Source: Bugulina stolonifera (taxonomy: Eukaryota > Bryozoa > Gymnolaemata > Cheilostomatida > Bugulidae). Taken from it: a stretch of 64,000 nt of DNA. Both the position numbers and the translations under genes were made by a program. Below the pieces are notes generated by a model that saw only the letters and a program-made list of their open reading frames with translations, was not told the DNA's origin and ran no database searches. How positions within the stretch are numbered: position 1 is the first letter of the stretch; each line of letters opens with the position of its first letter. The stretch lies in assembly GCA_935421135.1 (NCBI GenBank), contig OW285194.1, forward strand, positions 1,448,501-1,512,500. Direction: 5' to 3'. This document shows, piece after piece, positions 2,831 through 53,499 of the stretch.

Positions 2831-3038
2831 CTGTATGGTGGCATGAAGTCCACAAATGATATGAACCACTTGACAGGTTCTCTGATGGATGTTATATACA
2901 CAGTCTGGTTAGAAAAGTTTTTAGTGAAGAACTTGTGATTGTATCTGGCATGTTGTTCTAGAATATGAGGATTACTTCTGTCTGGTCCTATATCCCATGA
3001 CTCTCCTGGATCCATCTCCCTTGTGTTCACTATGGATT
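2831..3038 (-). CDS. Gene A exon 3: sulfotransferase 3'-phosphate-binding region
   Basis: This 208-nt exon is bounded by an acceptor TTCTTGCAG at 3039-3047 and a donor CAG|GTATTACAG below 2831. The frame enters in phase 1 and exits in phase 2. It encodes ESIVNTREMDPG, HARYNHKFFTKN, VYITSIREPVKWFISF and DFMPPYR. IREPVKWFISF fits the sulfotransferase 3'-phosphate (3'-PB) motif, in which an arginine and a downstream serine contact the 3'-phosphate of PAPS. The partner exon in gene B (50159-50366) has the same length and differs at about six of 70 residues. Confidence 0.85.
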
Positions 3039-4650: not shown

Positions 4651-4752
4651 AGCTATTTCGGCACTTTTCCTTATTTAATTACATTAATGTAATTTATTTT
4701 GCTTTCATTTTGTTAAAAATGGGTAAGTCTGGCTTAAAAGCTGATACTTCTG

Positions 4753-9949: not shown

Positions 9950-10148
9950 CTTTAATTGTTGACATCATCATATTCAGCTTATGTCTGTAACCATAGGACG
10001 AGAATATATTTGAGAATGTAGAACTTCCTGTCTTTGGTACTTTGATGTAAACAAAATAATCCTGTCTGGACCCTGAAGGGTTTGATGACATCCTATGATT
10101 ATCCACATTATTGTTATTCAGGCTTCTCATGATGAAGTCTAGTTTAAG
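9950..10148 (-). CDS. Gene A exon 2: PAPS 5'-phosphosulfate-binding region
   Basis: A 199-nt exon with acceptor TTGTTTTAG and donor AAAG|GTATGATG. It enters in phase 0 and leaves in phase 1. It encodes a variable stem segment (LKLDFIMRSLNNNN) followed by VYIKVPKTGSSTFSNIFSSY and GYRHKLNMMMSTI. PKTGSSTFSNIF fits the 5'-phosphosulfate-binding (5'-PSB) loop of sulfotransferases. The exon 2 core is nearly identical to gene B, while the stem region has diverged strongly in sequence and slightly in length (66 versus 65 codons). Confidence 0.85.
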
Positions 10149-10508
10149 CTAAAACAATGTTCTACGTTTATATAGATACATGTATATAAATATCGCAGTG
10201 CCCTCATTCTAAATACTGTGCATATCGTGTTAATGGACAATAGAGGTAAACCTTGAAAAAATAGACTGAAATTCGAATCACAAAGCAATGCGATTGTCTT
10301 ATTGGTATTAGATAATGTAATGGTGTAATACATTTACTGTATCACTATGTTAAAATTGTAGTTGTAGTGCAGTGTGTTGACTGGGAGAGTTATGTCTATG
10401 GGGGAACACTGCGTGACATGTTGGGCTGAAGGAAAGGTTTTATTAATGCCATCTGTTGTTGCAGGCCCAATATAGCCTTTTGTTAACTTCCTGTGGCTCT
10501 GTACGGGA
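10149..10508. other. Unique intron 1 sequence before the satellite
   Basis: 360 bp between exon 2 of gene A and the satellite array. No repeat or gene seen. It includes the polypyrimidine/acceptor region of exon 2 at its left end. Confidence 0.6.
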
Positions 10509-13500
10509 ATAGTAATACTTACACTACAGTATATATTGTAGTAGTAATACTTACACTACAGTATATATTGTAATAGTTATACTTACACTACAGTATATAT
10601 TGTAGTAGTAATACTTACACTATAGTATATATTGTAATAGTAATACTTACACTACAGTATATATTGTAATAGTAATACTTACACTACAGTATATATTGTA
10701 ATAGTAATACTTACACTACAGTATATATTGTAGTAGTAATACTTACACTATAGTATATATTGTAATAGTTATACTTACACTATAGTATATATTGTAATAG
10801 TAATACTTACACTACAGTATATATTGTAATAGTAATACTTACACTACAGTATATATTGTAGTAGTAATACTTACACTACAGTATTATATTGTAATAGTAA
10901 TACTTACACTACAGTATATATTGTAATAGTAATACTTACACTATAGTATATATTGTAATAGTAATACTTACACTATAGTATATATTGTAATAGTAATACT
11001 TACACTACAGTATATATTGTAATAGTTATACTTACACTACAGTATTATATTGTAGTAGTAATACTTACACTACAGTATATATTGTAATAGTAATACTTAC
11101 ACTATAGTATATATTGTAGTAGTAATACTTACACTACAGTATATATTGTAGTAGTAATACTTACACTACAGTATATATTGTAATAGTTATACTTACACTA
11201 TAGTATATATTGTAATAGTAATACTTACACTACAGTATATATTGTAGTAGTTATACTTACACTATAGTATATATTGTAATAGTAATACTTAAGCTACAGT
11301 ATATATTGTTATAGTAATACTTACACTACAGTATATATTGTAATAGTAATACTTACACTACAGTATTATATTGTAATAGTAATACTTACACTACAGTATA
11401 TATTGTAATAGTAATACTTACACTATAGTATATATTGTAATAGTAATACTTACACTACAGTATATATTGTAATAGTAATACTTACACTATAGTATTATAT
11501 TGTAATAGTAATACTTACACTACAGTATATATTGTAGTAGTAATACTTACACTACAGTATATATTGTAATAGTAATACTTACACTACAGTATATATTGTA
11601 GTAGTAATACTTACACTACAGTATATATTGTAATAGTTATACTTACACTATAGTATATATTGTAATAGTAATACTTACACTACAGTATATATTGTAATAG
11701 TAATACTTACACTATAGTATATATTGTAATAGTAATACTTACACTACAGTATATATTGTAATAGTAATACTTACACTATAGTATATATTGTAATAGTAAT
11801 ACTTAAGCTACAGTATATATTGTTATAGTAATACTTACACTACAGTATATATTGTAATAGTAATACTTACACTACAGTATATATTGTAGTAGTAATACTT
11901 ACACTACTAACAGTATATATTGTAGTAGTAATACTTACACTACAGTATATATTGTAATAGTAATACTTACACTACAGTATATATTGTAATAGTAATACTT
12001 ACACTATAGTATATATTGTAATAGTAATACTTACACTACAGTATATATTGTAGTAGTAATACTTACACTACAGTATATATTGTAATAGTAATACTTACAC
12101 TACAGTATATATTGTAATAGTAATACTTACACTACAGTATATATTGTAATAGTAATACTTACACTGCAGTATATATTGTAATAGTAATACTTACACTATA
12201 GTATATATTGTAATAGTAATACTTACACTACAGTATATATTGTAGTAGTAATACTTACACTACAGTATATATTGTAATAGTAATACTTACACTGCAGTAT
12301 ATATTGTAATAGTAATACTTACACTATAGTATATATTGTAATAGTAATACTTACACTACAGTATATATTGTAGTAGTAATACTTACACTACAGTATATAT
12401 TGTAATAGTAATACTTACACTGCAGTATATATTGTAATAGTAATACTTACACTACAGTATATATTGTAGTAGTAATACTTACACTACAGTATATATTGTA
12501 ATAGTAATACTTACACTACAGTATATATTGTAATAGTAATACTTACACTGCAGTATATATTGTAATAGTAATACTTACACTATAGTATATATTGTAATAG
12601 TAATACTTACACTATAGTATATATTGTAATAGTAATACTTACACTACAGTATATATTGTAGTAGTAATACTTACACTACAGTATATATTGTAATAGTAAT
12701 ACTTACACTGCAGTATATATTGTAATAGTAATACTTACACTACAGTATATATTGTAATAGTAATACTTACACTACAGTATATATTGTAGTAGTGATACTT
12801 ACACTACAGTATATATTGTAATAGTAATACTTACACTACAGTATATATTGTAATAGTAATACTTACACTACAGTATATATTGTAATAGTAATACTTACAC
12901 TGCAGTATATATTGTAATAGTAATACTTACACTACAGTATATATTGTAGTAGTAATACTTACACTACAGTATATATTGTAATAGTAATACTTACACTATA
13001 GTATATATTGTAATAGTAATACTTACACTATAGTATATATTGTAATAGTAATACTTACACTATAGTATATATTGTAATAGTAATACTTACACTATAGTAT
13101 ATATTGTAATAGTAATACTTACACTGCAGTATATATTGTAATAGTAATACTTACACTATAGTATATATTGTAATAGTAATACTTACACTACAGTATATAT
13201 TGTAGTAGTAATACTTACACTACAGTATATATTGTAATAGTAATACTTACACTATAGTATATATTGTAATAGTAATACTTACACTACAGTATATATTGTA
13301 ATAGTAATACTTACACTATAGTATATATTGTAATAGTAATACTTACACTATAGTATATATTGTTATAGTAATACTTACACTACAGTATATATTGTAGTAG
13401 TAATACTTACACTACAGTATATATTGTAGTAGTAATACTTACACTACAGTATATATTGTAATAGTAATACTTACACTATAGTATATATTGTAATAGTAAT

Positions 13501-16500
13501 ACTTACACTACAGTATATATTGTAGTAGTAATACTTACACTACAGTATATATTGTAATAGTAATACTTACACTACAGTATATATTGTAATAGTTATACTT
13601 ACACTACAGTATATATTGTAGTAGTAATACTTACACTACAGTATATATTGTAATAGTAATACTTACACTGCAGTATATATTGTAATAGTATTACTTACAC
13701 TACAGTATATATTGTAATAGTAATACTTACACTACAGTATATATTGTAATAGTAATACTTACACTATAGTATATATTGTAGTAGTAATACTTACACTACA
13801 GTATATATTGTAATAGTAATACTTACACTACAGTATATATTGTAATAGTAATACTTACACTATAGTATATATTGTAGTAGTAATACTTACACTACAGTAT
13901 TATATTGTAATAGTAATACTTACACTACAGTATATATTGTAGTAGTAATACTTACACTACAGTATATATTGTAATAGTTATACTTACACTACAGTATATA
14001 TTGTAGTAGTAATACTTACACTACAGTATATATTGTAATAGTAATACTTACACTACAGTATATATTGTAATAGTAATACTTACACTACAGTATATATTGT
14101 AGTAGTAATACTTACACTATAGTATATATTGTAATAGTTATACTTACACTATAGTATATATTGTAATAGTAATACTTACACTACAGTATATATTGTAATA
14201 GTAATACTTACACTACAGTATATATTGTAGTAGTAATACTTACACTACAGTATTATATTGTAATAGTAATACTTACACTACAGTATATATTGTAATAGTA
14301 ATACTTACACTATAGTATATATTGTAATAGTAATACTTACACTATAGTATATATTGTAATAGTAATACTTACACTACAGTATATATTGTAATAGTTATAC
14401 TTACACTACAGTATTATATTGTAGTAGTAATACTTACACTACAGTATATATTGTAATAGTAATACTTACACTATAGTATATATTGTAATAGTAATACTTA
14501 CACTACAGTATATATTGTAATAGTAATACTTACACTACAGTATTATATTGTAATAGTAATACTTACACTATAGTATATATTGTAATAGTAATACTTACAC
14601 TATAGTATTATATTGTAATAGTAATACTTACACTACAGTATATATTGTAGTAGTAATACTTACACTACAGTATATATTGTAATAGTAATACTTACACTAC
14701 AGTATATATTGTAGTAGTAATACTTACACTACAGTATATATTGTAATAGTTATACTTACACTATAGTATATATTGTAATAGTAATACTTACACTACAGTA
14801 TATATTGTAATAGTAATACTTACACTATAGTATATATTGTAATAGTTATACTTACACTACAGTATATATTGTAATAGTAATACTTACACTATAGTATATA
14901 TTGTAATAGTAATACTTACACTACAGTATATATTGTAATAGTAATACTTAAGCTACAGTATATATTGTTATAGTAATACTTACACTACAGTATATATTGT
15001 AATAGTAATACTTACACTACAGTATATATTGTAGTAGTAATACTTACACTACTAACAGTATATATTGTAGTAGTAATACTTACACTACAGTATATATTGT
15101 AATAGTAATACTTACACTACAGTATATATTGTAATAGTAATACTTACACTGCAGTATATATTGTAATAGTAATACTTACACTATAGTATATATTGTAATA
15201 GTAATACTTACACTACAGTATATATTGTAGTAGTAATACTTACACTACAGTATATATTGTAATAGTAATACTTACACTGCAGTATATATTGTAATAGTAA
15301 TACTTACACTACAGTATATATTGTAGTAGTAATACTTACACTACAGTATATATTGTAATAGTAATACTTACACTACAGTATATATTGTAATAGTAATACT
15401 TACACTGCAGTATATATTGTAATAGTAATACTTACACTATAGTATATATTGTAATAGTAATACTTACACTATAGTATATATTGTAATAGTAATACTTACA
15501 CTACAGTATATATTGTAGTAGTAATACTTACACTACAGTATATATTGTAATAGTAATACTTACACTGCAGTATATATTGTAATAGTAATACTTACACTAC
15601 AGTATATATTGTAATAGTAATACTTACACTACAGTATATATTGTAGTAGTGATACTTACACTACAGTATATATTGTAATAGTAATACTTACACTACAGTA
15701 TATATTGTAATAGTAATACTTACACTACAGTATATATTGTAATAGTAATACTTACACTGCAGTATATATTGTAATAGTAATACTTACACTACAGTATATA
15801 TTGTAGTAGTAATACTTACACTACAGTATATATTGTAATAGTAATACTTACACTATAGTATATATTGTAATAGTAATACTTACACTATAGTATATATTGT
15901 AATAGTAATACTTACACTATAGTATATATTGTAATAGTAATACTTACACTATAGTATATATTGTAATAGTAATACTTACACTGCAGTATATATTGTAATA
16001 GTAATACTTACACTATAGTATATATTGTAATAGTAATACTTACACTACAGTATATATTGTAGTAGTAATACTTACACTACAGTATATATTGTAATAGTAA
16101 TACTTACACTATAGTATATATTGTAATAGTAATACTTACACTACAGTATATATTGTAATAGTAATACTTACACTATAGTATATATTGTAATAGTAATACT
16201 TACACTATAGTATATATTGTTATAGTAATACTTACACTACAGTATATATTGTAGTAGTAATACTTACACTACAGTATATATTGTAGTAGTAATACTTACA
16301 CTACAGTATATATTGTAATAGTAATACTTACACTATAGTATATATTGTAATAGTAATACTTACACTACAGTATATATTGTAGTAGTAATACTTACACTAC
16401 AGTATATATTGTAATAGTAATACTTACACTACAGTATATATTGTAATAGTTATACTTACACTACAGTATATATTGTAGTAGTAATACTTACACTACAGTA

Positions 16501-19500
16501 TATATTGTAATAGTAATACTTACACTGCAGTATATATTGTAATAGTATTACTTACACTACAGTATATATTGTAATAGTAATACTTACACTACAGTATATA
16601 TTGTAATAGTAATACTTACACTATAGTATATATTGTAGTAGTAATACTTACACTACAGTATATATTGTAATAGTAATACTTACACTACAGTATATATTGT
16701 AATAGTAATACTTACACTATAGTATATATTGTAGTAGTAATACTTACACTACAGTATTATATTGTAATAGTAATACTTACACTACAGTATATATTGTAAT
16801 AGTAATACTTACACTATAGTATATATTGTAATAGTAATACTTACACTACAGTATATATTGTAGTAGTAATACTTACACTACAGTATATATTGTAATAGTA
16901 ATACTTACACTGCAGTATATATTGTAATAGTAATACTTACACTATAGTATATATTGTAATAGTAATACTTACACTGCAGTATATATTGTAATAGTAATAC
17001 TTACACTACAGTATATATTGTAATAGTAATACTTACACTGCAGTATATATTGTAATAGTAATACTTACACTATAGTATATATTGTAATAGTAATACTTAC
17101 ACTACAGTATATATTGTAGTAGTAATACTTACACTACAGTATATATTGTAGTAGTAATACTTACACTACAGTATATATTGTAATAGTAATACTTACACTA
17201 TAGTATATATTGTAATAGTAATACTTACACTACAGTATATATTGTAGTAGTAATACTTACACTACAGTATATATTGTAATAGTAATACTTACACTACAGT
17301 ATATATTGTAATAGTAATACTTACACTGCAGTATATATTGTAATAGTAATACTTACACTATAGTATATATTGTAATAGTAATACTTACACTACAGTATAT
17401 ATTGTAATAGTAATACTTACACTGCAGTATATATTGTAATAGTATTACTTACACTACAGTATATATTGTAATAGTATTACTTACACTACAGTATATATTG
17501 TAATAGTAATACTTACACTATAGTATATATTGTAGTAGTTATACTTACACTACAGTATATATTGTAATAGTTATACTTACACTATAGTATATAGTGTAAT
17601 AGTAATATTTACACTACAGTATATATTGTAGTAGTAATACTTACACTACAGTATATATTGTAATAGTTATACTTACACTATAGTATATAGTGTAATAGTA
17701 ATATTTACACTATAGTACATGTATATATTGTAATAGTTATACTTACACTACAGTATATATTGTAATAGTAATACTTACACTACAGTATATATTGTAATAG
17801 TAATACTTACACTATAGTATATATTGTAATAGTAATACTTACACTACAGTATATATTGTAGTAGTTATACTTACACTATAGTATATATTGTAATAGTTAT
17901 ACTTACACTACAGTATATATTGTAGTAGTAATACTTACACTACAGTATATATTGTAATAGTAATACTTACACTACAGTATATATTGTAATAGTAATACTT
18001 ACACTACAGTATATATTGTAATAGTAATACTTACACTATAGTATATATTGTAATAGTAATACTTACACTACAGTATATATTGTAATAGTAATACTTACAC
18101 TACAGTATATATTGTAATAGTAATACTTACACTATAGTATATATTGTAATAGTAATACTTACACTGCAGTATATATTGTAATAGTAATACTTACACTACA
18201 GTATATATTGTAATAGTTATACTTACACTATAGTATATAGTGTAATAGTAATATTTACACTACAGTATATATTGTAGTAGTTATACTTACACTACAGTAT
18301 ATATTGTAATAGTAATACTTACACTACAGTATATATTGTAATAGTAATACTTACACTATAGTATATATTGTAATAGTAATACTTACACTACAGTATATAT
18401 TGTAGTAGTAATACTTACACTACAGTATATATTGTAATAGTAATACTTACACTATAGTATATATTGTAATAGTAATACTTACACTGCAGTATATATTGTA
18501 ATAGTAATACTTACACTACAGTATATATTGTAATAGTAATACTTACACTACAGTATATATTGTAATAGTAATACTTACACTATAGTATATATTGTAATAG
18601 TAATACTTACACTACAGTATATATTGTAGTAGTAATACTTACACTATAGTATATATTGTAATAGTAATACTTACACTACAGTATATATTGTAATAGTAAT
18701 ACTTACACTACAGTATATATTGTAATAGTAATACTTACACTATAGTATATATTGTAATAGTAATACTTACACTACAGTATATATTGTAGTAGTTATACTT
18801 ACACTACAGTATATATTGTAATAGTAATACTTACACTACAGTATATATTGTAATAGTAATACTTACACTATAGTATATATTGTAATAGTAATACTTACAC
18901 TACAGTATATATTGTAGTAGTAATACTTACACTACAGTATATATTGTAATAGTAATACTTACACTATAGTATATATTGTAATAGTAATACTTACACTGCA
19001 GTATATATTGTAATAGTAATACTTACACTACAGTATATATTGTAGTAGTAATACTTACACTACAGTATATATTGTAATAGTAATACTTACACTATAGTAT
19101 ATATTGTAATAGTAATACTTACACTGCAGTATATATTGTAATAGTAATACTTACACTATAGTATATATTGTAATAGTAATACTTACACTATAGTATATAT
19201 TGTAATAGTTATACTTACACTATAGTATATAGTGTAATAGTAATACTTACACTACAGTATATATTGTAGTAGTAATACTTACACTACAGTATATATTGTA
19301 ATAGTAATACTTACACTACAGTATATATTGTAATAGTAATACTTACACTATAGTATATATTGTAATAGTAATACTTACACTACAGTATATATTGTAGTAG
19401 TAATACTTACACTACAGTATATATTGTAATAGTAATACTTACACTACAGTATATATTGTAATAGTAATACTTACACTATATTATATATTGTAATAGTAAT

Positions 19501-22500
19501 ACTTACACTACAGTATATATTGTAATAGTAATACTTACACTATAGTATATATTGTAATAGTTATACTTACACTATAGTATATAGTGTAATAGTAATATTT
19601 ACACTATAGTACATGTATATATTGTAATAGTTATACTTACACTACAGTATATATTGTAATAGTAATACTTACACTACTAACAGTATATATTGTAATAGTA
19701 ATACTTACACTACAGTATATATTGTAATAGTAATACTTACACTACAGTATTATATTGTAATAGTAATACTTACACTACAGTATATATTGTAATAGTAATA
19801 CTTACACTGCAGTATATATTGTAATAGTAATACTTACACTATAGTATATATTGTAATAGTAATACTTACACTACAGTATATATTGTAGTAGTAATACTTA
19901 CACTACAGTATATATTGTAATAGTAATACTTACACTATAGTATATATTGTAATAGTAATACTTACACTACAGTATATATTGTAGTAGTAATACTTACACT
20001 ACAGTATATATTGTAATAGTAATACTTACACTGCAGTATATATTGTAATAGTATTACTTACACTACAGTATATATTGTAATAGTATTACTTACACTACAG
20101 TATATATTGTAATAGTAATACTTACACTACAGTATATATTGTAATAGTAATACTTACACTGCAGTATATATTGTAATAGTAATACTTACACTACAGTATA
20201 TATTGTTATAGTAATACTTACACTACCGTATATATTGTAATAGTAATACTTACACTACAGTATATATTGTAATAGTTATACTTACACTATAGTATATAGT
20301 GTAATAGTAATATTTACACTACAGTATATATTGTAGTAGTAATACTTACACTACAGTATATATTGTAATAGTTATACTTACACTATAGTATATAGTGTAA
20401 TAGTAATATTTACACTATAGTACATGTATATATTGTAATAGTTATACTTACACTACAGTATATATTGTAATAGTAATACTTACACTGCAGTATATATTGT
20501 AATAGTATTACTTACACTACAGTATATATTGTAATAGTATTACTTACACTACAGTATATATTGTAATAGTAATACTTACACTATAGTATATATTGTAATA
20601 GTAATACTTACACTGCAGTATATATTGTAATAGTAATACTTACACTACAGTATATATTGTTATAGTAATACTTACACTACCGTATATATTGTAATAGTAA
20701 TACTTACACTACAGTATATATTGTAATAGTTATACTTACACTATAGTATATAGTGTAATAGTAATATTTACACTACAGTATATATTGTAGTAGTAATACT
20801 TACACTACAGTATATATTGTAATAGTAATACTTACACTATAGTATATATTGTAATAGTTATACTTACACTATAGTATATAGTGTAATAGTAATATTTACA
20901 CTATAGTACATGTATATATTGTAATAGTTATACTTACACTACAGTATATATTGTAATAGTAATACTTACACTACAGTATTATATTGTAATAGTAATACTT
21001 ACACTACAGTATATATTGTAGTAGTAATACTTACACTACAGTATATATTGTAATAGTAATACTTACACTACAGTATATATTGTAATAGTAATACTTACAC
21101 TATAGTATATATTGTAATAGTTATACTTACACTATAGTATATAGTGTAATAGTAATATTTACACTATAGTACATGTATATATTGTAATAGTTATACTTAC
21201 ACTACAGTATATATTGTAATAGTAATACTTACACTACAGTATATATTGTAATAGTAATACTTACACTACAGTATAAATTGTAATAGTAATACTTACACTA
21301 CAGTATATATTGTAGTAGTAATACTTACACTGCAGTATATATTGTAATAGTAATACTTACACTACAGTATATATTGTAATAGTAATACTTACACTACAGT
21401 ATAAATTGTAATAGTAATACTTACACTACAGTATATATTGTAGTAGTAATACTTACACTGCAGTATATATTGTAATAGTAATACTTACACTACAGTATAT
21501 ATTGTAATAGTAATACTTACACTACAGTATATATTGTAATAGTAATACTTACACTACAGTATAAATTGTAATAGTAATACTTACACTACAGTATATATTG
21601 TAGTAGTAATACTTACACTACAGTATATATTGTAATAGTAATACTTACACTACAGTATATATTGTAATAGTTATACTTACACTATAGTATATATTGTAAT
21701 AGTAATACTTACACTACAGTATATATTGTAATAGTAATACTTACACTACAGTATATATTGTAATAGTAATACTTACACTATAGTATATATTGTAATAGTA
21801 ATGCTTACACTATAGTATATATTGTAATAGTAATACTTACACTACAGTATATATTGTAATAGTTATACTTACACTACAGTATATATTGTAATAGTAATAC
21901 TTACACTATAGTATATATTGTAATAGTAATACTTACACTACAGTATATATTGTAATAGTAATACTTACACTACAGTATATATTGTAATAGTAATACTTAC
22001 ACTATAGTATATATTGTAATAGTAATACTTACACTACAGTATATATTGTAATAGTAATACTTACACTACAGTATATATTGTAATAGTAATACTTACACTA
22101 CAGTATATATTGTAATAGTAATACTTACACTACAGTATATATTGTAATAATAATACTTACACTACAGTATATATTGTAGTAGTAATACTTACACTATAGT
22201 ATATATTGTAATAGTTATACTTACACTACAGTATATATTGTAATAGTTATACTTACACTACAGTATATATTGTAATAGTAATACTTACACTATAGTATAT
22301 ATTGTAATAGTAATACTTACACTACAGTATATATTGTAATAGTAATACTTACACTACAGTATATATTGTAATAGTAATACTTACACTACAGTATATATTG
22401 TAATAGTAATACTTACACTACAGTATATATTGTAATAGTAATACTTACACTACAGTATATATTGTAATAGTAATACTTACACTACAGTATATATTGTAAT

Positions 22501-25500
22501 AGTAATACTTACACTACAGTATATATTGTAATAGTAATACTTACACTATAGTATATATTGTAATAGTTATACTTACACTACAGTATATATTGTAATAGTA
22601 ATACTTACACTACAGTATATATTGTAATAGTAATACTTACACTACAGTATATATTGTAATAGTTATACTTACACTACAGTATATATTGTAATAGTAATAC
22701 TTACACTACAGTATATATTGTAGTAGTAATACTTACACTACAGTATATATTGTAATAGTTATACTTACACTACAGTATAAATTGTAGTAGTAATACTTAC
22801 ACTACAGTATATATTGTAGTATTAATACTTACACTACAGTATATATTGTAATAGTAATACTTACACTACAGTATATATTGTAGTAGTAATACTTACACTA
22901 CAGTATATATTGTAATAGTAAGACTTACACTATAGTATATATTGTAGTAGTAATACTTACACTACCGTATATATTGTAATAGTAATACTTACACTACAGT
23001 ATATATTGTAATAGTTATACTTACACTATAGTATATAGTGTAATAGTAATATTTACACTATAGTACATGTATATATTGTAATAGTAATACTTACACTACA
23101 GTATATATTGTAATAGTAATACTTACACTACAGTATATATTGTAATAGTAATACTTACACTACAGTATATATTGTAGTAGTAATACTTACACTACAGTAT
23201 ATATTGTTATAGTAATACTTACACTACAGTATATATTGTAATAGTAATACTTACACTACAGTATATATTGTAATAGTAATACTTACACTACAGTATATAT
23301 TGTAATAGTAATACTTACACTACAGTATATATTGTAATAGTAATACTTAAGCTACAGTATATATTGTTATAGTAATACTTACACTACAGTATATATTGTA
23401 ATAGTAATACTTACACTACAGTATATATTGTAATAGTAATACTTACACTACAGTATATATTGTAGTAGTAATACTTACACTACAGTATATATTGTAATAG
23501 TATTACTTACACTATAGTATATATTGTTATAGTAATACTTACACTACAGTATATATTGTAATAGTAATACTTACACTACAGTATATATTGTAATAGTTAT
23601 ACTTACACTACAGTATATATTGTAATAATAATACTTACACTACAGTATATATTGTAATAGTAATACTTACACTACAGTATATATTGTAATAGTAATACTT
23701 ACACCATAGTATATATTGTAATAGTAATACTTACACTACAGTATATATTGTAATAGTAATACTTACACTATAGTATTATATTGTAGTAGTAATACTTACA
23801 CTATAGTATATATTGTAATAGTTATACTTACACTACAGTATATATTGTAATAGTAATACTTACACTACAGTATATATTGTAATAGTTATACTTACACTAC
23901 AGTATTATATTGTAATAGTAATACTTACACTACAGTATATATTGTAATAGTAATACTTACACTATAGTATATATTGTAATAGTAATACTTACACTACAGT
24001 ATTATATTGTAGTAGTAATACTTACACTACAGTATATATTGTAATAGTAATACTTACACTATAGTATATATTGTAATAGTAATACTTACACTACAGTATA
24101 TATTGTAGTAGTAATACTTACACTGCAGTATATATTGTAATAGTAATACTTACACTACAGTATATATTGTAATAGTAATACTTACACTACAGTATATATT
24201 GTAATAGTTATACTTACACTACAGTATTATATTGTAATAGTAATACTTACACTACAGTATATATTGTTATAGTAATACTTACACTATAGTATATATTGTA
24301 ATAGTAATACTTACACTACAGTATATATTGTAATAGTAATACTTACACTATAGTATATATTGTAATAGTAATACTTACACTACAGTATTATATTGTAGTA
24401 GTAATACTTACACTACAGTATATATTGTAATAGTAATACTTACACTATAGTATATATTGTAATAGTAATACTTACACTACAGTATATATTGTAATAGTTA
24501 TACTTACACTACAGTATATATTGTAATAGTAACACTTACACTACAGTATATATTGTAATAGTAATACTTACACTACAGTATATATTGTAATAGTAATACT
24601 TACACTATAGTATATATTGTAGTAGTAATACTTACACTACAGTATATATTGTAGTAGTAATACTTACACTACAGTATATATTGTAATAGTAATACTTACA
24701 CTACAGTATATATTGTAATAGTAATACTTACACTACAGTATATATTGTAATAGTAATACTTACACTATAGTATATATTGTAATAGTAATACTTACACTAC
24801 AGTATTATATTGTAGTAGTAATACTTACACTACAGTATATATTGTAATAGTAATACTTACACTACAGTATATATTGTAATAGTAATACTTACACTATAGT
24901 ATATATTGTAGTAGTAATACTTACACTACAGTATTATATTGTAGTAGTAATACTTACACTACAGTATATATTGTAATAGTAATACTTACACTACAGTATA
25001 TATTGTAATAGTAATACTTACACTACAGTATATATTGTAGTAGTAATACTTACACTACAGTATATATTGTAATAGTTATACTTACACTATAGTATATAGT
25101 GTAATAGTAATACTTACACTATAGTATATATTGTAATAGTAATACTTACACTATAGTATATATTGTAGTAGTAATACTTACACTATAGTATATATTGTAA
25201 TAGTAATACTTACACTACAGTATATATTGTAATAGTAATACTTACACTACAGTATATATTGTAATAGTAATACTTACACTACAGTATATATTGTAGTAGT
25301 AATACTTACACTACAGTATATATTGTAATAGTTATACTTACACTATAGTATATAGTGTAATAGTAATACTTACACTACAGTATATATTGTAATAGTAATA
25401 CTTACACTACAGTATATATTGTAATAGTAATACTTACACTACAGTATATATTGTAGTAGTAATACTTACACTACAGTATATATTGTAATAGTAATACTTA

Positions 25501-28500
25501 CACTATAGTATATATTGTAGTAGTAATACTTACACTATAGTATATATTGTAGTAGTAATACTTACACTACAGTATATATTGTAATAGTAATACTTACACT
25601 ACAGTATATATTGTTATAGTAATACTTACACTACAGTATATATTGTAATAGTAATACTTACACTACAGTATATATTGTAATAGTAATACTTACACTACAG
25701 TATATATTGTAATAGTAATACTTACACTACTAACAGTATATATTGTAATAGTTATACTTACACTACAGTATATATTGTAATAGTAATACTTACACTATAG
25801 TATTATATTGTAATAGTAATACTTACACTACAGTATATATTGTAATAGTAATACTTACACTACAGTATATATTGTAATAGTAATACTTACACTACAGTAT
25901 ATATTGTAATAGTAATACTTACACTATAGTATATATTGTAATAGTAATACTTACACTATAGTATATATTGTAATAGTAATACTTACACTACAGTATATAT
26001 TGTAATAGTAATACTTACACTACAGTATATATTGTAGTAGTAATACTTACACTACAGTATATATTGTAATAGTAATACTTACACTACTAACAGTATATAT
26101 TGTAATAGTAATACTTACACTATAGTATATATTGTAATAGTAATACTTACACTACAGTATATATTGTAATAGTAATACTTACACTACAGTATATATTGTA
26201 ATAGTAATACTTACACTACAGTATATATTGTAGTAGTAATACTTACACTACAGTATATATTGTAATAGTTATACTTACACTATAGTATATAGTGTAATAG
26301 TAATACTTACACTATAGTATATATTGTAATAGTAATACTTACATTATAGTATATATTGTAGTAGTAATACTTACACTACTAACAGTATATATTGTAATAG
26401 TAATACTTACACTATAGTATATATTGTAATAGTAATACTTACACTACAGTATATATTGTAATAGTAATACTTACACTACAGTATATATTGTAATAGTAAT
26501 ACTTACACTACAGTATATATTGTAATAGTAATACTTACACTACTAACAGTATATATTGTAATAGTTATACTTACACTACAGTATATATTGTAATAGTAAT
26601 ACTTACACTATAGTATATAGTGTAATAGTAATACTTACACTACTAACAGTATATATTGTAATAGTAATACTTACACTATAGTATATATTGTAATAGTAAT
26701 ACTTACACTACAGTATATATTGTAATAGTAATACTTACACTACAGTATATATTGTAATAGTAATACTTACACTACTAACAGTATATATTGTAATAGTAAT
26801 ACTTACACTATAGTATATATTGTAATAGTAATACTTACACTATAGTATATATTGTAATAGTAATACTTACACTACAGTATATATTGTAATAGTAATACTT
26901 ACACTACTAACAGTATATATTGTAATAGTAATACTTACACTATAGTATATATTGTAATAGTAATACTTACACTACAGTATATATTGTAATAGTAATACTT
27001 ACACTACAGTATATATTGTAATAGTAATACTTACACTACAGTATATATTGTAATAGTAATACTTACACTACTAACAGTATATATTGTAATAGTTATACTT
27101 ACACTACAGTATATATTGTAATAGTAATACTTACACTATAGTATATAGTGTAATAGTAATATTTACACTATAGTACATGTATATATTGTAATAGTAATAC
27201 TTACACTACAGTATATATTGTAATAGTAATACTTACACTACAGTATATATTGTAATAGTAATACTTACACTACAGTATTATATTGTAATAGTAATACTTA
27301 CACTACAGTATATATTGTAATAGTAATACTTACACTACAGTATATATTGTAATAGTAATACTTACACTATAGTATATATTGTAATAGTAATACTTACACT
27401 ACAGTATATATTGTAATAGTAATACTTACACTACAGTATATATTGTAATAGTAATACTTACACTACAGTATATATTGTAATAGTAATACTTACACTACAG
27501 TATTATATTGTAATAGTAATACTTACACTACTAACAGTATATATTGTAATAGTTATACTTACACTACAGTATATATTGTAATAGTAATACTTACACTATA
27601 GTATTATATTGTAATAGTAATACTTACACTACAGTATATATTGTAATAGTAATACTTACACTACAGTATATATTGTAATAGTAATACTTACACTACAGTA
27701 TATATTGTAATAGTAATACTTACACTACAGTATTATATTGTAATAGTAATACTTACACTACTAACAGTATATATTGTAATAGTTATACTTACACTACAGT
27801 ATATATTGTAATAGTAATACTTACACTATAGTATTATATTGTAATAGTAATACTTACACTACAGTATATATTGTAATAGTAATACTTACACTACAGTATA
27901 TATTGTAATAGTAATACTTACACTACAGTATATATTGTAATAGTAATACTTACACTACTAACAGTATATATTGTAATAGTAATACTTACACTACAGTATA
28001 TATTGTAATAGTAATACTTACACTATAGTATATATTGTAATAGTAATACTTACACTACAGTATATATTGTAATAGTAATACTTACACTACAGTATATATT
28101 GTAATAGTAATACTTACACTACAGTATATATTGTAGTAGTAATACTTACACTACAGTATATATTGTAATAGTTATACTTACACTATAGTATATAGTGTAA
28201 TAGTAATACTTACACTATAGTATATATTGTAATAGTAATACTTACACTATAGTATATATTGTAGTAGTAATACTTACACTATAGTATATATTGTAATAGT
28301 AATACTTACACTACAGTATATATTGTAATAGTAATACTTACACTACAGTATATATTGTAATAGTAATACTTACACTACAGTATATATTGTAGTAGTAATA
28401 CTTACACTACAGTATATATTGTAATAGTTATACTTACACTATAGTATATAGTGTAATAGTAATACTTACACTATAGTATATATTGTAATAGTAATACTTA

Positions 28501-31500
28501 CACTACAGTATATATTGTAATAGTAATACTTACACTACAGTATATATTGTAATAGTAATACTTACACTACAGTATATATTGTAATAGTAATACTTACACT
28601 ACAGTATATATTGTAGTAGTAATACTTACACTACAGTATATATTGTTATAGTAATACTTACACTACAGTATATATTGTAGTAGTAATACTTACACTACAG
28701 TATATATTGTAATAGTAATACTTACACTATAGTATATATTGTAGTAGTAATACTTACACTATAGTATATATTGTAGTAGTAATACTTACACTACAGTATA
28801 TATTGTAATAGTAATACTTACACTACAGTATATATTGTTATAGTAATACTTACACTACAGTATATATTGTAATAGTAATACTTACGCTACAGTATATATT
28901 GTAATAGTAATACTTACACTACAGTATATATTGTAATAGTAATACTTACACTACTAACAGTATATATTGTAATAGTTATACTTACACTACAGTATATATT
29001 GTAATAGTAATACTTACACTACAGTATATATTGTAATAGTAATACTTACACTATAGTATATATTGTAGTAGTAATACTTACACTACAGTATATATTGTAA
29101 TAGTAATACTTACACTACAGTATATATTGTAATAGTAATACTTACACTACAGTATATATTGTAATAGTAATACTTACACTACAGTATATATTGTAATAAT
29201 AATACTTACACTACAGTATATATTGTAGTAGTAATACTTACACTACAGTATATATTGTAATAGTAATACTTACACTACAGTATATATTGTAGTAGTAATA
29301 CTTACACTACAGTATATATTGTAATAGTAATACTTACACTATAGTATATATTGTAATAGTAATACTTACACTACAGTATATATTGTAGTAGTAATACTTA
29401 CACTACAGTATATATTGTAGTAGTAATACTTACACTACAGTATATATTGTAATAGTAATACTTACACTACAGTATATATTGTAATAGTAATACTTACACT
29501 ATAGTATATATTGTAATAGTAATACTTACACTACAGTATATATTGTAATAGTAATACTTACACTACAGTATATATTGTAATAGTAATACTTACACTACAG
29601 TATTATATTGTAATAGTAATACTTACACTACAGTATAATATTGTAATAGTAATACTTACACTATAGTATATATTGTTATAGTAATACTTACACTACAGTA
29701 TATATTGTAATAGTAATACTTACACTACAGTATATATTGTAGTAGTAATACTTACACTATAGTATATATTGTAATAGTAATACTTACACTACAGTATATA
29801 TTGTAATAGTAATACTTACACTACAGTATATATTGTAATAGTTATACTTACACTATAGTATATATTGTAATAGTAATACTTACACTATAGTATATATTGT
29901 AATAGTAATACTTACACTACAGTATATATTGTAATAGTAATACTTACACTACAGTATATATTGTAGTAGTAATACTTACACTATAGTATATATTGTAATA
30001 GTAATACTTACACTACAGTATATATTGTAATAGTAATACTTACACTACAGTATATATTGTAATAGTTATACTTACACTATAGTATATATTGTAATAGTAA
30101 TACTTACACTATAGTATATATTGTAATAGTAATACTTACACTACAGTATATATTGTAGTAGTAATACTTACACTACAGTATATATTGTAATAGTTATACT
30201 TACACTATAGTATATATTGTAATAGTAATACTTACACTATAGTATATATTGTAATAGTAATACTTACACTACAGTATATATTGTAATAGTTATACTTACA
30301 CTACAGTATATATTGTAATAGTAATACTTACACTGCAGTATATATTGTAATAGTAATACTTACACTACAGTATATATTGTAATAGTAATACTTACACTAC
30401 AGTATATATTGTAGTAGTTATACTTACACTACAGTATTATATTGTAATAGTAATACTTACACTATAGTATATATTGTTATAGTAATACTTACACTACAGT
30501 ATATATTGTAATAGTAATACTTACACTACAGTATTATATTGTAATAGTAATACTTACACTATAGTATATATTGTTATAGTAATACTTACACTACAGTATA
30601 TATTGTAATAGTAATACTTACACTACAGTATATATTGTAATAGTAATACTTACACTACAGTATATATTGTAATAGTAATACTTACACTACAGTATATATT
30701 GTTATAGTAATACTTACACTACAGTATATATTGTAATAGTAATACTTACACTATAGTATATATTGTAATAGTAATACTTACACTACAGTATATATTGTAG
30801 TAGTAATACTTACACTACAGTATATATTGTAATAGTAATACTTACACTACAGTATTATATTGTAATAGTAATACTTACACTATAGTATATATTGTTATAG
30901 TAATACTTACACTACAGTATATATTGTAATAGTAATACTTACACTACAGTATATATTGTAATAGTAATACTTACACTACAGTATATATTGTAATAGTAAT
31001 ACTTACACTACAGTATATATTGTTATAGTAATACTTACACTACAGTATATATTGTAATAGTAATACTTACACTATAGTATATATTGTAATAGTAATACTT
31101 ACACTACAGTATATATTGTAGTAGTAATACTTACACTACAGTATATATTGTAATAGTAATACTTACACTACAGTATATATTGTAATAGTAATACTTACAC
31201 TACAGTATATATTGTAATAGTAATACTTACACTATAGTATATATTGTTATAGTAATACTTACACTATAGTATATATTGTAATAGTAATACTTACACTACA
31301 GTATATATTGTAATAGTAATACTTACACTACAGTATATATTGTAGTAGTAATACTTACACTATAGTATATATTGTAATAGTAATACTTACACTACAGTAT
31401 ATATTGTAATAGTAATACTTACACTACAGTATATATTGTAATAGTAATACTTACACTACAGTATATATTGTAATAGTAATACTTACACTACAGTATATAT

Positions 31501-32615
31501 TGTAATAGTAATACTTACACTACAGTATATATTGTAATAGTAATACTTACACTATAGTATATATTGTAATAGTAATACTTACACTACAGTATATATTGTA
31601 GTAGTAATACTTACACTACAGTATATATTGTAATAGTAATACTTACACTACAGTATATATTGTAATAGTAATACTTACACTACAGTATATATTGTAATAG
31701 TAATACTTACACTACAGTATATATTGTAATAGTAATACTTACACTACAGTATTATATTGTAATAGTAATACTTACACTACAGTATATATTGTAATAGTAA
31801 TACTTACACTACAGTATATATTGTAATAGTAATACTTACACTATAGTATATATTGTAATAGTAATACTTACACTATAGTATATATTGTAATAGTAATACT
31901 TACACTACAGTATATATTGTAATAGTAACACTTACACTACAGTATATATTGTAATAGTAATACTTACACTACAGTATATATTGTAATAGTAATACTTACA
32001 CTACAGTATATATTGTAATAGTAATACTTACACTACAGTATATATTGTAATAGTAATACTTACACTATAGTATATATTGTAATAGTTATACTTACACTAC
32101 AGTATATATTGTAATAATAATACTTACACTACAGTATATATTGTAATAGTAATACTTACACTACAGTATATATTGTAATAGTAATACTTACACTACAGTA
32201 TATATTGTAATAGTAATACTTACACTATAGTATATATTGTAATAGTTATACTTACACTACAGTATATATTGTAATAGTTATACTTACACTATAGTATATA
32301 TTGTAATAGTAATACTTACACTACAGTATATATTGTAATAGTAATACTTACACTACCGTATATATTGTAATAATAATACTTACACTACAGTATATATTGT
32401 AATAGTAATACTTACACTACAGTATATATTGTAATAGTAATACTTACACTACAGTATTATATTGTAATAGTAATACTTACACTACAGTATATATTGTAAT
32501 AGTAATACTTACACTACAGTATATATTGTAATAGTAATACTTACACTATAGTATATATTGTAATAGTAATACTTACACTACAGTATATATTGTAATAGTA
32601 ATACTTACACTACCG
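10509..32615. repeat. 22.1-kb array of a 32-bp minisatellite
   Basis: About 690 head-to-tail units. The plus-strand unit joins AGTAATACTTACACTACAGT to ATATATTGTAGT. Variation is confined to few sites: CTACAG/CTATAG/CTGCAG, TGTAATAG/TGTAGTAG/TGTTATAG and AGTAATAC/AGTTATAC. Rarer forms are CTACTAACAG, GTACATGTATATATTG and a one-base-longer GTATTATATTG. On the minus strand, the sense strand of gene A, each unit reads GTAAGTATTACT, a consensus splice donor. CTACAGTATATATTGTAG is nearly palindromic. The array fills intron 1 of gene A and ends 20 bp from the exon 1 donor. Blocks of several units recur in order, showing internal segmental duplication. Confidence 0.98.
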
Positions 32616-32642
32616 TAAGCACCATAATTTAGTTGTACTTAC

Positions 32643-32765
32643 TTGAGTAGGAAGAATTGAAATTCCATATACGTAAAGTAGTAAGTAGATCGAGAGGCCG
32701 ACACCTATCACAGATATCAATCTGGTAGGGTGACGAAATACCTGTAGACCGAAGCCCAGCACCAT
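32643..32765 (-). CDS. Gene A exon 1: cytoplasmic tail and signal anchor
   Basis: From ATG (32763-32765) this exon gives 41 codons, beginning MVLGFGLQVFRHPTRL and followed by a hydrophobic segment (ISVIGVGLSIYLLLYVYGI). That is a short basic N-terminus plus one membrane span, as expected for a type II Golgi sulfotransferase. The donor is CTCAA|GTAAGTAC, phase 0, matching exon 2. The counterpart in gene B aligns only loosely (shared IYLLL), so this exon diverged faster than the catalytic exons. The exon was found by reading upstream of the satellite, and the start codon is the only ATG in the frame close to the donor. Confidence 0.7.
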
Positions 32766-38913: not shown

Positions 38914-39029
38914 TTAATAGTCAAGTTGATACTTCATTTTACTGGAACGAGAAGGAATGTACTTGTCTAGAGCAGCTGAGAATTCCAAGTTTTGTCCATC
39001 CTGAACTCTCATTGCTAGACAGTCTCTCT
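38914..39029 (-). CDS. Gene B exon 8: C-terminus
   Basis: A terminal exon with acceptor TTGTACTTTAG, entering in phase 1. It encodes ERDCLAMRVQDGQNLEF, then AALDKYIPSRSSKMKYQLDY and a TAA at 38914-38916. Phase agreement with exon 7 and a hydrophilic end of family-typical length support it. Confidence 0.8.
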
Positions 39030-39149
39030 CTAAAGTACAAATACATCCACTATAACTACATGTATGATAAATTGGCGTTAGCTTCATACAGCAGGATTCT
39101 AGTGTAAATACGTGTAGATATGTGTACAGTACTGTATAATATACAATGT

Positions 39150-39495
39150 ACATGTGACTTACATACGGTGCTATACATACAAGTGACCTACATACAGCAC
39201 TATATATACAAGTGACCTACATACAGCTCTATATATACAAGTGACCTACATACAGCACCATATATACAAGTGACCTACATACAGCACTATATATACATGT
39301 ACAAGTGACCTACATACAGCACTATATATACAAGTGACCTACATACATGTACAGCACTATATATACAAGTGACCAACATACAGCACTATATATACATGTA
39401 TATGTGACCTACACGTACATACAGTGCTATACATACAAGTGACCTACATACAGCACTACATATACATGTATATGTGACCTACATACAGTACTATT
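39150..39495. repeat. 29-bp minisatellite in intron 7
   Basis: About 11 units with core GACCTACATACAGCACTATA then TATACAAGT, some with added TACATG words. Confidence 0.85.
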
Positions 39496-39504
39496 TATAC
39501 ATAT

Positions 39505-40615: not shown

Positions 40616-40647
40616 ATGTAAATCATGTACATGATGAGCGAATCTAC

Positions 40648-40774
40648 CTTCAAAATAGAAAGGTTGGCTCTCCCAGCGAGTAAACAATTCCATTTTCAGG
40701 GATTTATCAGCTTTTAATTCTGCACTAAAACAGAACTCTTGTACCTTGGGGTTGAGTTCTCTAAACACCTTTAC
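40648..40774 (-). CDS. Gene B exon 7
   Basis: A 127-nt exon, acceptor GTCACACAG, donor TTTGAAG|GTAGAT, phase 0 in and 1 out. Encodes VKVFRELNPKVQEFCFSAEL and on to TRWESQPFYFE. C-terminal part of the catalytic domain; charged and without recognised motifs. Confidence 0.8.
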
Positions 40775-41141: not shown

Positions 41142-41317
41142 CTCATCAAAGAACTCGGGCTGCTGAGAGACTTTCTCCCAGAAAGATTTATTAAAATGTT
41201 GATAGAGCATCCAATCTCCAAGATTGTGTTCACTATCTAATAGCTTTTCCCTCTCCTGTTGTGTAAACACGGTTCCACTTTTCTTCGTCGCTTCATTAGC
41301 ATAGGAATAGAATATAT
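41142..41317 (-). CDS. Gene B exon 6
   Basis: A 176-nt exon, acceptor TTTTTTACAG, donor GATGAG|GTATAA, phase 1 in and 0 out. It encodes IFYSYANEATKKSG, REKLLDSEHNLGDWMLYQHF and NKSFWEKV. The (D/Y)xHFNxxFW pattern is characteristic of the C-terminal part of Gal3ST proteins. Confidence 0.88.
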
Positions 41318-42066: not shown

Positions 42067-42213
42067 CTGCCATTGACCAGTTCATCAATCTCCTTAGCAG
42101 AACTAGAGATTCATCAAAGTACTCTGTAATCATGACAAGCATGAACCTCCTGTCAACAAATTCTATGTAGTCCTTGATAGCTTGTATATCATCCGATGTG
42201 TAGACATCAAAAC
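42067..42213 (-). CDS. Gene B exon 5: EYFDESLVLLRR signature
   Basis: A 147-nt exon, acceptor TTGCCACAG, donor ATGGCAG|GTTAGA, phase 1 in and out. It encodes FDVYTSDDIQAIKDYIEFVD and RRFMLVMITEYFDESLVLLR. The EYFDESLVLLRRL sequence is a strong, family-defining block of galactose-3-O-sulfotransferases. Confidence 0.92.
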
Positions 42214-42793: not shown

Positions 42794-42903
42794 CCAGCCA
42801 CTGGAGAAAGTTGTTATGAACTTGTCTCTGCATTCCTGTAATATAGCTTCTTGACTTGTAAAAGAGCTTGTTAGAATTTAGCACTTGTCTAGGAGAATTC
42901 TCT
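42794..42903 (-). CDS. Gene B exon 4
   Basis: A 110-nt exon with acceptor CACAATCTTTTAG and donor CTGG|GTAAGTC, phase 2 in and 1 out. Encodes ENSPRQVLNSNKLFYKS, then GMQRQVHNNFLQWLG. The first base completes the arginine of MPPYR in exon 3. The region between the 3'-PB motif and the EYFDES block is variable in the family, so support comes from splice sites and phase. Confidence 0.75.
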
Positions 42904-43334: not shown

Positions 43335-43343
43335 TATATAAAG
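43335..43343 (+). promoter_or_regulatory. LTR TATA box
   Basis: TATATAAAG at the expected position between the hairpin-rich U3 and the R region. The same word recurs at 49359-49367 and in the 62419 LTR. Confidence 0.75.
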
Positions 43344-43387
43344 GGCACTGTTTTACTGTTCACTGTCTCAGTCTACACTTGGCTTTC

Positions 43388-43393
43388 AATAAA
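43388..43393 (+). terminator. LTR polyadenylation signal
   Basis: AATAAA within TTTCAATAAAGACAC, 45 bp past the TATA box. It would act in the 3' LTR copy (49412-49417) to end the transcript. Confidence 0.6.
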
Positions 43394-50158: not shown

Positions 50159-50366
50159 CTGTATGGTGGCATGTAGTCTACAAATGATATGAACCACTTG
50201 ACAGGTTCTCTGATGGATGTTATATACACAGTCTGGTTGGGAAAGATTTTAGTGAAGAACTTGTGATTGTATCTGGCATGTTGTTCTAGAATATGAGGGT
50301 TACTTCTGTCTGGTCCTATATCCCATGATCCTCCTGGCTTCATCTCTCTAGTGTTTACTAAGGACT
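50159..50366 (-). CDS. Gene B exon 3: 3'-phosphate-binding region
   Basis: A 208-nt exon, acceptor GGTATTATAG, donor CCATACAG|GTATTA, phase 1 in and 2 out. Encodes ESLVNTREMKPG, DRSNPHILEQHARYNHKFF and VYITSIREPVKWFISF. The equivalent of gene A exon 3. Confidence 0.92.
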
Positions 50367-50871: not shown

Positions 50872-51067
50872 CTTCAATTGTCGACATCATCATATTCAGG
50901 TTGTGTCTGTAGCCGTAGGATGAGAATATATTTGAGAATGTTGAGCTTCCTGTTTTTTCCACTTTGATATAAACAACATGGTCTTTCCTGGGTCCTGGTG
51001 GTTTTAAGGCATTCTTGCTATTGAAAGGTTCATTTCGACTTGGACTTTCTTCTGTGTCTTCATTCAA
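50872..51067 (-). CDS. Gene B exon 2: PAPS-binding loop
   Basis: A 196-nt exon, acceptor AATTTACTCTAG, donor TTGAAG|GTACGA, phase 0 in and 1 out. It encodes a variable stem (LNEDTEESPSRNEP), then VVYIKVEKTGSSTFSNIFSS and YGYRHNLNMMMSTI. KTGSSTFSNIF is the 5'-PSB loop. The usual proline before KTG is glutamate here (proline in gene A), a change at the edge of the loop. Confidence 0.92.
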
Positions 51068-52959: not shown

Positions 52960-53035
52960 AGCGATACAATACTAATCTGTAAAATTGCATGCACCATGTA
53001 CCCACCTCATTTGTTCCATTTCGACCACTGCCTGC

Positions 53036-53379
53036 ACTACAGTATATATTGTAGTAGTTATACTTACACTACAATATATATTGTATAATAGTAATACTTA
53101 CACTACAGTATATAATTATTGTAATAATAATACTTACACTACAGTATTATATTGTAATAGTAATATTTACACTACAGTATATTATATTGTAATAGTTATA
53201 CTTACACTACAGTATATATTGTAATAGTAATATTTACACTGCAGTATAAATTATATTGTAATAGTTATACTTACACTACAGTATTATATTATAATAGTAA
53301 TATTTACACTACAGTATATAATTATTGCAATAGTAATACTTACACTACAGTATATAATTATTGCAATAGTAATACTTAC
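53036..53379. repeat. Short, diverged array of the 32-bp satellite in gene B intron 1
   Basis: About ten units of the 10509-32615 repeat, with more substitutions and indels (TATAATTATTG, TATATTATATTG). On the sense strand the array starts with the exon 1 donor: AGT|GTAAGTATTACT. Confidence 0.92.
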
Positions 53380-53499
53380 ACTGTAAGGCACACCAAATAC
53401 GGCCAGTAGTAGGTAGATGGCCAAGGAGATGCTGACCACAAATATCAGTTTGGAATGGAGGCGGAAGATTCGTACAGGGAAGACTGCAGTGATCGGCAT
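53380..53499 (-). CDS. Gene B exon 1: signal anchor
   Basis: Forty codons from ATG (53497-53499): MPITAVFPVRIFRLHSKL followed by a membrane span (IFVVSISLAIYLLLAVFGV), a type II signal anchor. The donor is the first satellite unit, phase 0. Two bases upstream of the ATG is an acceptor (GCTTTACAG), so the message probably has an earlier untranslated exon, not located. Confidence 0.85.

What the first reader, a model, noticed from the sequence alone, without database searches (positions are those of the whole stretch)
10509..32642. Intron 1 of a sulfotransferase gene is a 22-kb satellite in which every unit is a consensus splice donor
On the sense (minus) strand the roughly 690 units each contain GTAAGTAT, the ideal U1-binding sequence, and the array starts 20 bp downstream of the true exon 1 donor (CAA|GTAAGTACAACTA, 11 of 13 bases like the unit). 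The transcript would carry hundreds of tandem perfect 5' splice sites. That could titrate U1, protect the long intron from premature polyadenylation, force alternative donor use, or be tolerated because no acceptor lies between. I know of no described intron of this kind.
Basis: partly seen in the sequence, partly recalled or inferred. Interest (0 to 1): 0.88.

Follow-up and report, generated by a model that had tools for sequence, protein, structure and literature searches.

The report
A satellite grown from a splice site
In what is very likely a moss animal (bryozoan), the predicted first intron of a sugar-sulfating enzyme gene is 98% one 22-kb array of 687 copies of a 32-base repeat, nearly all carrying a splice-start signal (GTAAGT); a neighbouring sister gene has the same repeat starting exactly at its own predicted splice-start site, so the array likely grew out of that site and would normally be cut out as one inert intron.

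Summary
The array is real: 687 units of 32 bp at window 10508-32617, 671 with GTAAGT on the sense (minus) strand. It fills 98.3% of a predicted 22,494-nt intron 1 in an intact 8-exon, 401-aa Gal3ST-type sulfotransferase gene. The main discovery lies outside the reported interval: a tandem paralogue (399 aa, same exon phases) has ten units of the same repeat at 53035-53379, and the first unit's GTAAGTATT is its predicted exon-1 donor. Genome-wide, 649 units match within 3 mismatches (no indels); my counts place 639 in this array, 2 in the paralogue and 8 at one chromosome-2 locus, so no dispersed satellite was found. Best reading: a donor-seeded minisatellite that amplified hugely in one paralogue. 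Distinct variants show no extra constraint on the donor motif, which favours hitchhiking over selection. Human IFI6 has a known small donor minisatellite, so this is a giant new variant of a known kind. No RNA evidence could be examined.

The parts
32643..32765 (-). Gene 1 predicted exon 1: ATG and hydrophobic type-II signal-anchor-like segment (MVLGFGLQVFRHPTRLISVIGVGLSIYLLLYVYGISILPTQ), phase 0
32632..32642 (-). Predicted gene 1 exon-1 donor CAA|GTAAGTACAAC; its first 13 intron bases equal the start of one unit of the chromosome-2 array
10508..32617 (-). 32-bp satellite, 687 units, sense unit GTAAGTATTACTATTACAATATATACTGTAGT; 671 carry GTAAGT, 668 carry AGTGTAAG
10149..32642 (-). Predicted intron 1 of gene 1, 22,494 nt, 98.3% array
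9950..10148 (-). Gene 1 predicted exon 2 (KVPKTGSST motif, sulfotransferase-like by recall)
2831..3038 (-). Gene 1 predicted exon 3; exons 4-8 continue outside the window at C8:1440495-1448294
53380..53499 (-). Gene 2 (tandem paralogue) predicted exon 1, ends TACAGT at the first array unit
53035..53379 (-). Gene 2 copy of the repeat, ten units of 32-37 nt; unit 1's GTAAGTATT is the predicted exon-1 donor; units 1 and 2 are 36 nt and open in frame
50872..51067 (-). Gene 2 predicted exon 2
50159..50366 (-). Gene 2 predicted exon 3
42794..42903 (-). Gene 2 predicted exon 4
42067..42213 (-). Gene 2 predicted exon 5
41142..41317 (-). Gene 2 predicted exon 6
40648..40774 (-). Gene 2 predicted exon 7
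38914..39029 (-). Gene 2 predicted exon 8 with stop codon

Best explanation
The 22-kb array fills a predicted first intron and likely arose when the 5' end of that intron, donor site included, was duplicated in tandem in an ancestor of two neighbouring sulfotransferase genes and then amplified to 687 copies in one of them; nearly every unit would be a splice donor because the founder was one. Inferred: founding at the donor, and growth by unequal exchange or slippage, including multi-unit block duplication. Predicted: the transcript is normally spliced from the exon-1 donor to exon 2 in one 22.5-kb step; the units bind U1 to some degree but are mostly unproductive decoys, disfavoured by a poor exonic side (U at -1) and because using any of them in gene 1 would put an in-frame stop into the message; the array is kept by neutral tolerance.
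For: Gene 2's exon 1 ends TACAGT|GTAAGTATTACTATT and the array runs on from that base. Both paralogues have 8 predicted exons with identical phases and full-length frames of 401 and 399 aa, 73.6% identical, dN/dS about 0.25 (0.178/0.726). Unit census: the genome count of 649 equals 639 + 2 + 8 counted locally. Gene 1's first 13 intron bases equal the first 13 of one chromosome-2 unit. Substitution types shared with the main array: 5 of 7 for gene 2 (p 0.005) and 10 of 18 for C2 (p 0.0005); mutation bias ignored. Young amplification: 687 units fall into 43 types, and exact runs of 40 units recur 89 units apart. No special constraint on the donor motif by distinct variants or in the smaller arrays. 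Using unit 1's donor in gene 1 puts TAG in frame.
Against: The third paralogue (gene 0, no array; its exon 1 is a weak call, E 0.075) has an intron 1 beginning GTAAGTGTTAC, but its likeness to the unit beyond the donor is not significant (13 of the 189 other background GTAAGT sites score as well), so no single-copy ancestor is shown. The chromosome-2 array (10 full and 2 partial units, 7.5% changed from the consensus, no recognisable sulfotransferase exon nearby) has the same consensus and could be the source; gene 2 and C2 share only 3 variant types (p 0.12). Raw per-copy counts in the main array show the motif five-fold less changed than the rest (0.5 vs 2.7%), although copies are not independent. 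U1 pairing energies rate 669 of 686 unit junctions above gene 1's own donor, which makes inert decoys less obvious. The census misses units with indels or more than 3 mismatches, as it misses 8 of gene 2's 10. No RNA data were examined.
Confidence: 0.58

Rival explanations
1. The minisatellite came from elsewhere (the chromosome-2 locus or its ancestor), was copied into intron 1 of an ancestral sulfotransferase gene, and its donor-like unit then took over as the exon-1 donor.
For: The chromosome-2 array has the same 32-bp consensus and the most changed units (26 of 348 positions); it lies beside an LTR-like repeat. Gene 0 lacks the array.
Against: Starting exactly at the predicted first intron base of gene 2 (intron of 2,312 nt) and 34 nt from the gene 1 donor would be a coincidence; no other locus was found genome-wide within 3 mismatches.
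Confidence: 0.22
2. Several units are used as alternative donors, as in human IFI6; in gene 2 using unit 2 or unit 3 would add 12 or 24 residues (VSITIAIIIYCS, once or twice) next to the membrane anchor.
For: The first two gene 2 units are 36 nt, in frame and stop-free; IFI6 precedent (introduction passage).
Against: In gene 1 every array donor would add a stop codon; by a small local donor model units score low (median 0.69 against 4.22 for the gene 1 donor and 7.66 for the median of 12 other donors), though gene 2's own donor scores the same 0.69. No RNA evidence.
Confidence: 0.12
3. The array has a selected role as a U1 platform: it protects the intron from premature polyadenylation or titrates U1.
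For: The genome's U1 genes begin ATACTTACCTG in 3 of 3 read, of 15 found; 669 of 686 unit junctions pair with it more strongly than gene 1's own donor (-7.0 kcal/mol), most at about -8.9 through a bulged register (inserted bases left out). Raw copy counts favour the motif.
Against: No excess conservation of the motif by distinct variants or in the smaller arrays. The array holds no AATAAA or ATTAAA on the sense strand to be protected against, although 664 AATATA occur. Only one of the three tandem paralogues has a large array.
Confidence: 0.05
4. Assembly artefact (false expansion or misplacement).
For: The array is likely longer than many HiFi reads (recalled); long exact internal repeats exist.
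Against: The matched assembly used 52-fold HiFi reads and hifiasm (passages of PMC10213821); no N in the 104 kb read; the same repeat sits at the homologous place in the paralogue. Copy number may still be off.
Confidence: 0.03

Closest known systems
[quoted passage not shown] title seen in reference lists, paper not held)
   Same: Tandem repeat whose units carry donor sites at an exon-intron border; two downstream units are used as donors according to the introduction of PMC4526556 (passage).
   Different: IFI6 is a small array of short units (recalled: 12 bp, about 26 copies) with donor use reported; here 32-bp units, 687 copies, filling a 22-kb intron, with a short sister array in a paralogue; donor use untested.
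Drosophila Y-linked gigantic introns of kl-3 and kl-5 filled with simple satellite DNA (PMC6508621, abstract read)
   Same: Satellite makes up nearly the whole intron and would be transcribed.
   Different: Megabase introns of simple repeats; the abstract does not describe the units as splice donors.
Polyubiquitin UBC, a tandem array of dual-specific AGGT splice sites (PMC10809524, abstract read)
   Same: A tandem repeat in which each unit carries a splice-site motif.
   Different: Coding repeat with AGGT usable both ways; here intronic, with AG-T-GT, not AGGT.
Intron gain by tandem duplication (PMC2891723, PMC4974935; search listing with start of abstract)
   Same: Tandem duplication that includes splice-site sequence.
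   Different: Those make a new intron; here an existing intron's donor end was likely multiplied.
TERT intron 6 VNTR6-1, 38-bp unit (PMC11830802; search listing with start of abstract)
   Same: An intronic minisatellite tied by its title to splicing of its gene.
   Different: Tens of copies; the listing does not say that the units are donors.

Membership tests
IFI6-type donor minisatellite | Repeat array abuts or overlaps the exon-intron boundary | tested here: met
   Gene 2: array begins at the predicted first intron base; gene 1: 34 nt downstream
IFI6-type donor minisatellite | Each unit carries a donor-like sequence | tested here: met
   GTAAGT in 671 of 687 units in gene 1; 7 of 10 in gene 2; 8 of 11 units covering these positions at C2
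IFI6-type donor minisatellite | More than one unit is used as donor in mRNA | not testable with these tools
   No RNA reads available; gene 2 units 1 and 2 are in frame without stops
Satellite-filled giant intron (kl-3, kl-5 type) | Satellite makes up nearly all of the intron | tested here: met
   98.3% of 22,494 nt
Satellite-filled giant intron (kl-3, kl-5 type) | Megabase scale | tested here: not met
   22 kb
Recursive-splicing (ratchet) site array | AG and GT directly joined (zero-length exon; rule recalled) | tested here: not met
   668 AG-T-GTAAG with one base between
Introner or dispersed intron-borne repeat | Many copies in many unrelated introns | tested here: not met
Galactose-3-O-sulfotransferase (host gene) | PF06990 above curated cut-off | tested here: met
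   122.3 bits against cut-off 27 for the earlier 352-aa model that missed two exons; with it the best hits are Watersipora subatra and Bugula neritina
Galactose-3-O-sulfotransferase (host gene) | Enzyme activity | not testable with these tools
   none

The most novel reading that the evidence does not exclude
The array is a chain of about 670 back-to-back splice sites: each unit has a usable-looking acceptor (TATATACTGTAG) one base before its donor, so the intron could be removed by repeated hops inside the satellite, each hop rebuilding a donor next to exon 1 and leaving one base. It would be an intron whose length is free to drift because splicing consumes it piece by piece.
Probability: 0.08. 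Interest if true: 0.9.

Novelty: new variant of a known kind. Interest (0 to 1): 0.62.

Why it matters
It is a natural experiment on how a spliceosome finds one real 5' splice site in front of 671 near-identical competitors, with sister genes carrying ten copies and none as built-in controls. It also suggests a birth route for a satellite: a functional splice site is the seed, so the repeats inherit its motif without selection. A large array of U1-matching sites in a real gene would let decoy-site, U1-titration and polyadenylation-protection ideas be tested directly.

Tried and rejected
1) Local folding hides the decoys while the real donor stays open: rejected. Predicted openness of the 8-nt site is 0.001 for the real donor against a mean of 0.009 for the 167 GTAAGTAT units of the 6-kb piece tested; 164 of 167 are more open than the real one.

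2) Selection keeps the donor motif: not supported by distinct variants or in the smaller arrays. The raw copy count in the main array goes the other way (0.5 vs 2.7% changed), but copies are not independent.

3) Gene 0's intron start as the single-copy ancestor: not significant (13 of the 189 other background sites score as well; shuffle p 0.11). The gene 1 donor stretch is weakly better (7 of 190; shuffle p 0.009).

4) Dispersed satellite, virus or introner: no exact copy in viral contigs; no other locus within 3 mismatches in the genome. Rfam gives 0 matches in the window at gathering thresholds.

5) A search with exons 1-3 found no solved structure. The first gene model (352 aa) missed two exons and was replaced by the 8-exon models; the Pfam and homology searches were not repeated with the new model. 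A review opened for further donor minisatellites gave none (PMC11506328, passages).

6) Sister-species DNA and RNA reads were out of reach with these tools; the order of branching of the three paralogues was not resolved (exons 3 and 5 are 93-94% identical between genes 1 and 2 and the others 63-81%, which suggests gene conversion).
Full report
WHAT IS THERE. The array runs from 10508 to 32617, period 32, 686.8 copies. On the minus (sense) strand the unit is GTAAGTATTACTATTACAATATATACTGTAGT. Dissected with a wrap-around alignment there are 687 units, the last one partial, of 43 types counting insertions; 671 begin GTAAGT and 659 carry GTAAGTAT. Multi-unit blocks recur exactly: runs of 40 units are repeated 89 units apart, so the array grew recently and partly by block duplication (inference).

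THE HOST GENE. Exons were predicted from homology and joined with GT...AG borders. Gene 1 (minus strand) has eight, 32765-32643, 10148-9950, 3038-2831 and five more just outside the window (read from L010), with an open frame of 401 aa. It belongs to the galactose-3-O-sulfotransferase family (PF06990, E 3.2e-35, found with an earlier 352-aa model). With that model the best hits are from the bryozoans Watersipora subatra (61% identity over 64%) and Bugula neritina (72% over 44%). Total length (234,951,659 bases) and six contig lengths, C4, C5, C8, C9, C10 and C11 (20.48, 20.27, 16.40, 16.36, 16.13, 14.31 Mb), match the chromosome table of Bugulina stolonifera tzBugStol2.1 (passages of PMC10213821); the held genome has 27 contigs and the paper lists 30 scaffolds. 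Intron 1 is 22,494 nt and 98.3% of it is the array.

THE PARALOGUES. Upstream on the same strand lies gene 2 (53499 to 38914), eight predicted exons with the same phases, 399 aa, 73.6% identical. The pair is under purifying selection as a whole (dN 0.178, dS 0.726), less clearly in exon 1 (0.525, 0.849). Gene 2's intron 1 (2,312 nt) begins with ten units of the same repeat, 32 to 37 nt long (53379-53035), and the GTAAGTATT of the first is the predicted exon-1 donor. A third tandem paralogue, gene 0, has exons 2-8 and a weakly called exon 1, and no array in its intron 1. The PF06990 search gave 41 exon-level or gene-level matches in the genome, the window's own included. Ten further stretches around some of them were fetched. 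A loose scan of 46 of the 54 loci then held (the eight left out overlap the arrays already known) found no array outside L013, only isolated matches with 7-9 edits. The genes were not covered in full.

HOW WIDESPREAD. With up to 3 mismatches and no indels the genome holds 649 units, all on the minus strand (the listing shows only the first 100 places, and the tool calls such counts lower bounds). Local counting gives 639 in the main array, 2 in gene 2 and 8 at C2:24956816-24957162, which uses up all 649. Units with indels are missed: 8 of gene 2's 10 and 48 of 687 in the main array are not counted, so scattered diverged copies are not excluded. The C2 array has the same consensus. It lies between an LTR-like repeat and the 5' side of an NDUFB3-like gene (name recalled). 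A short frame ending ...EEEEQ, followed by GTAGGACC, lies 25 nt before its first partial unit on the same strand; whether this is an exon is unknown.

DONOR QUALITY. The genome's U1 genes start ATACTTACCTG in 3 of 3 read, of 15 found. The unit pairs perfectly at +1 to +8 but has U at -1; the duplex program pairs the exonic AG with a bulged U, -8.9 kcal/mol for the commonest form, against -7.0 for gene 1's real donor. 669 of 686 unit junctions come out stronger than the real donor (inserted bases left out). A position model from the other 12 donors of the two genes says the reverse: units 0.69 (median of 671), gene 1 donor 4.22, gene 2 donor 0.69, the others 7.66 (leave-one-out median). With 12 training sites this is rough. 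The two measures disagree, so the donor strength of the units is open.

ACCEPTORS. By a 14-site acceptor model their median score is 3.47; 5 of the 14 real acceptors score lower (leave-one-out), and 12.1% of 1,771 other intronic AGs score as high. Stepwise splicing cannot be excluded, but the extra base between AG and GT is not the ratchet-site rule (recalled).

SELECTION OR HITCHHIKING. In the two smaller arrays the motif changes as fast as the rest. In the main array distinct variant types are as frequent inside the motif as outside (6 of 24 vs 15 of 72), although raw copy counts favour the motif (0.5 vs 2.7%). The neutral reading fits best: the units are donor-like because the founder was.

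ORIGIN. For donor seeding: position at base 1 of gene 2's predicted intron and 34 nt from the gene 1 donor, the 13-base match of gene 1's donor to a C2 unit, shared variants (5 of 7 and 10 of 18), and no other locus found. Against: no single-copy ancestor could be shown, and the C2 array could be the source.

LITERATURE. Searches were run on the topic. The IFI6 donor minisatellite is the nearest precedent (title in two reference lists and one introduction; the paper itself is not held). None of the titles and abstract starts listed by those searches describes an intron-filling satellite of splice donors; the library lacks most subscription papers, and I read only abstracts or passages of the papers cited.

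Noticed in passing
39520-40619: A second 32-bp-period array (34 copies, different unit) begins 28 nt after gene 2's predicted exon-7 donor and, with the repeat block at 39149-39503, fills most of that 1.6-kb intron; its unit does not contain the donor.
   Followed up: partly
L013 6816-7162 (C2:24956816-24957162): Only other place found with the repeat; lies between an LTR-like repeat and the 5' end of an NDUFB3-like gene, behind a possible exon on the same strand.
   Followed up: partly
gene 1 and gene 2 exons 3 and 5: 93-94% identical DNA while the other exons are 63-81% identical: looks like gene conversion between the tandem paralogues.
   Followed up: no
4738-6315 (+) and 43955-45265 (+): Retroelement-like frames inside gene 1 intron 2 and between gene 2 exons 3 and 4 (DUF7047 above cut-off with RVT_3 just under its cut-off; Retrotrans_gag just under its cut-off).
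   Followed up: partly
43107-43451, 49131-49475, 62680-63030 (+): A near-identical 114-116-aa frame occurs three times; a similar frame lies in the LTR-like repeat of L013 (6303-6635), and related repeat DNA lies in gene 0's intron 1.
   Followed up: no
L010 8316-9483: 41-bp tandem array, 28.5 copies at 98% match, inside gene 1's predicted intron 4.
   Followed up: no
C2:20372001-20757115: Eight of the 15 U1 genes found lie within 0.4 Mb on C2, in groups of 3, 2 and 3.
   Followed up: no
L050 9331 (+): GTAAGTTGTTGTTATTATAATATTACTATTAGT beside another Gal3ST-like gene on C10 was the best-scoring background GTAAGT site against the unit; possibly chance.
   Followed up: no
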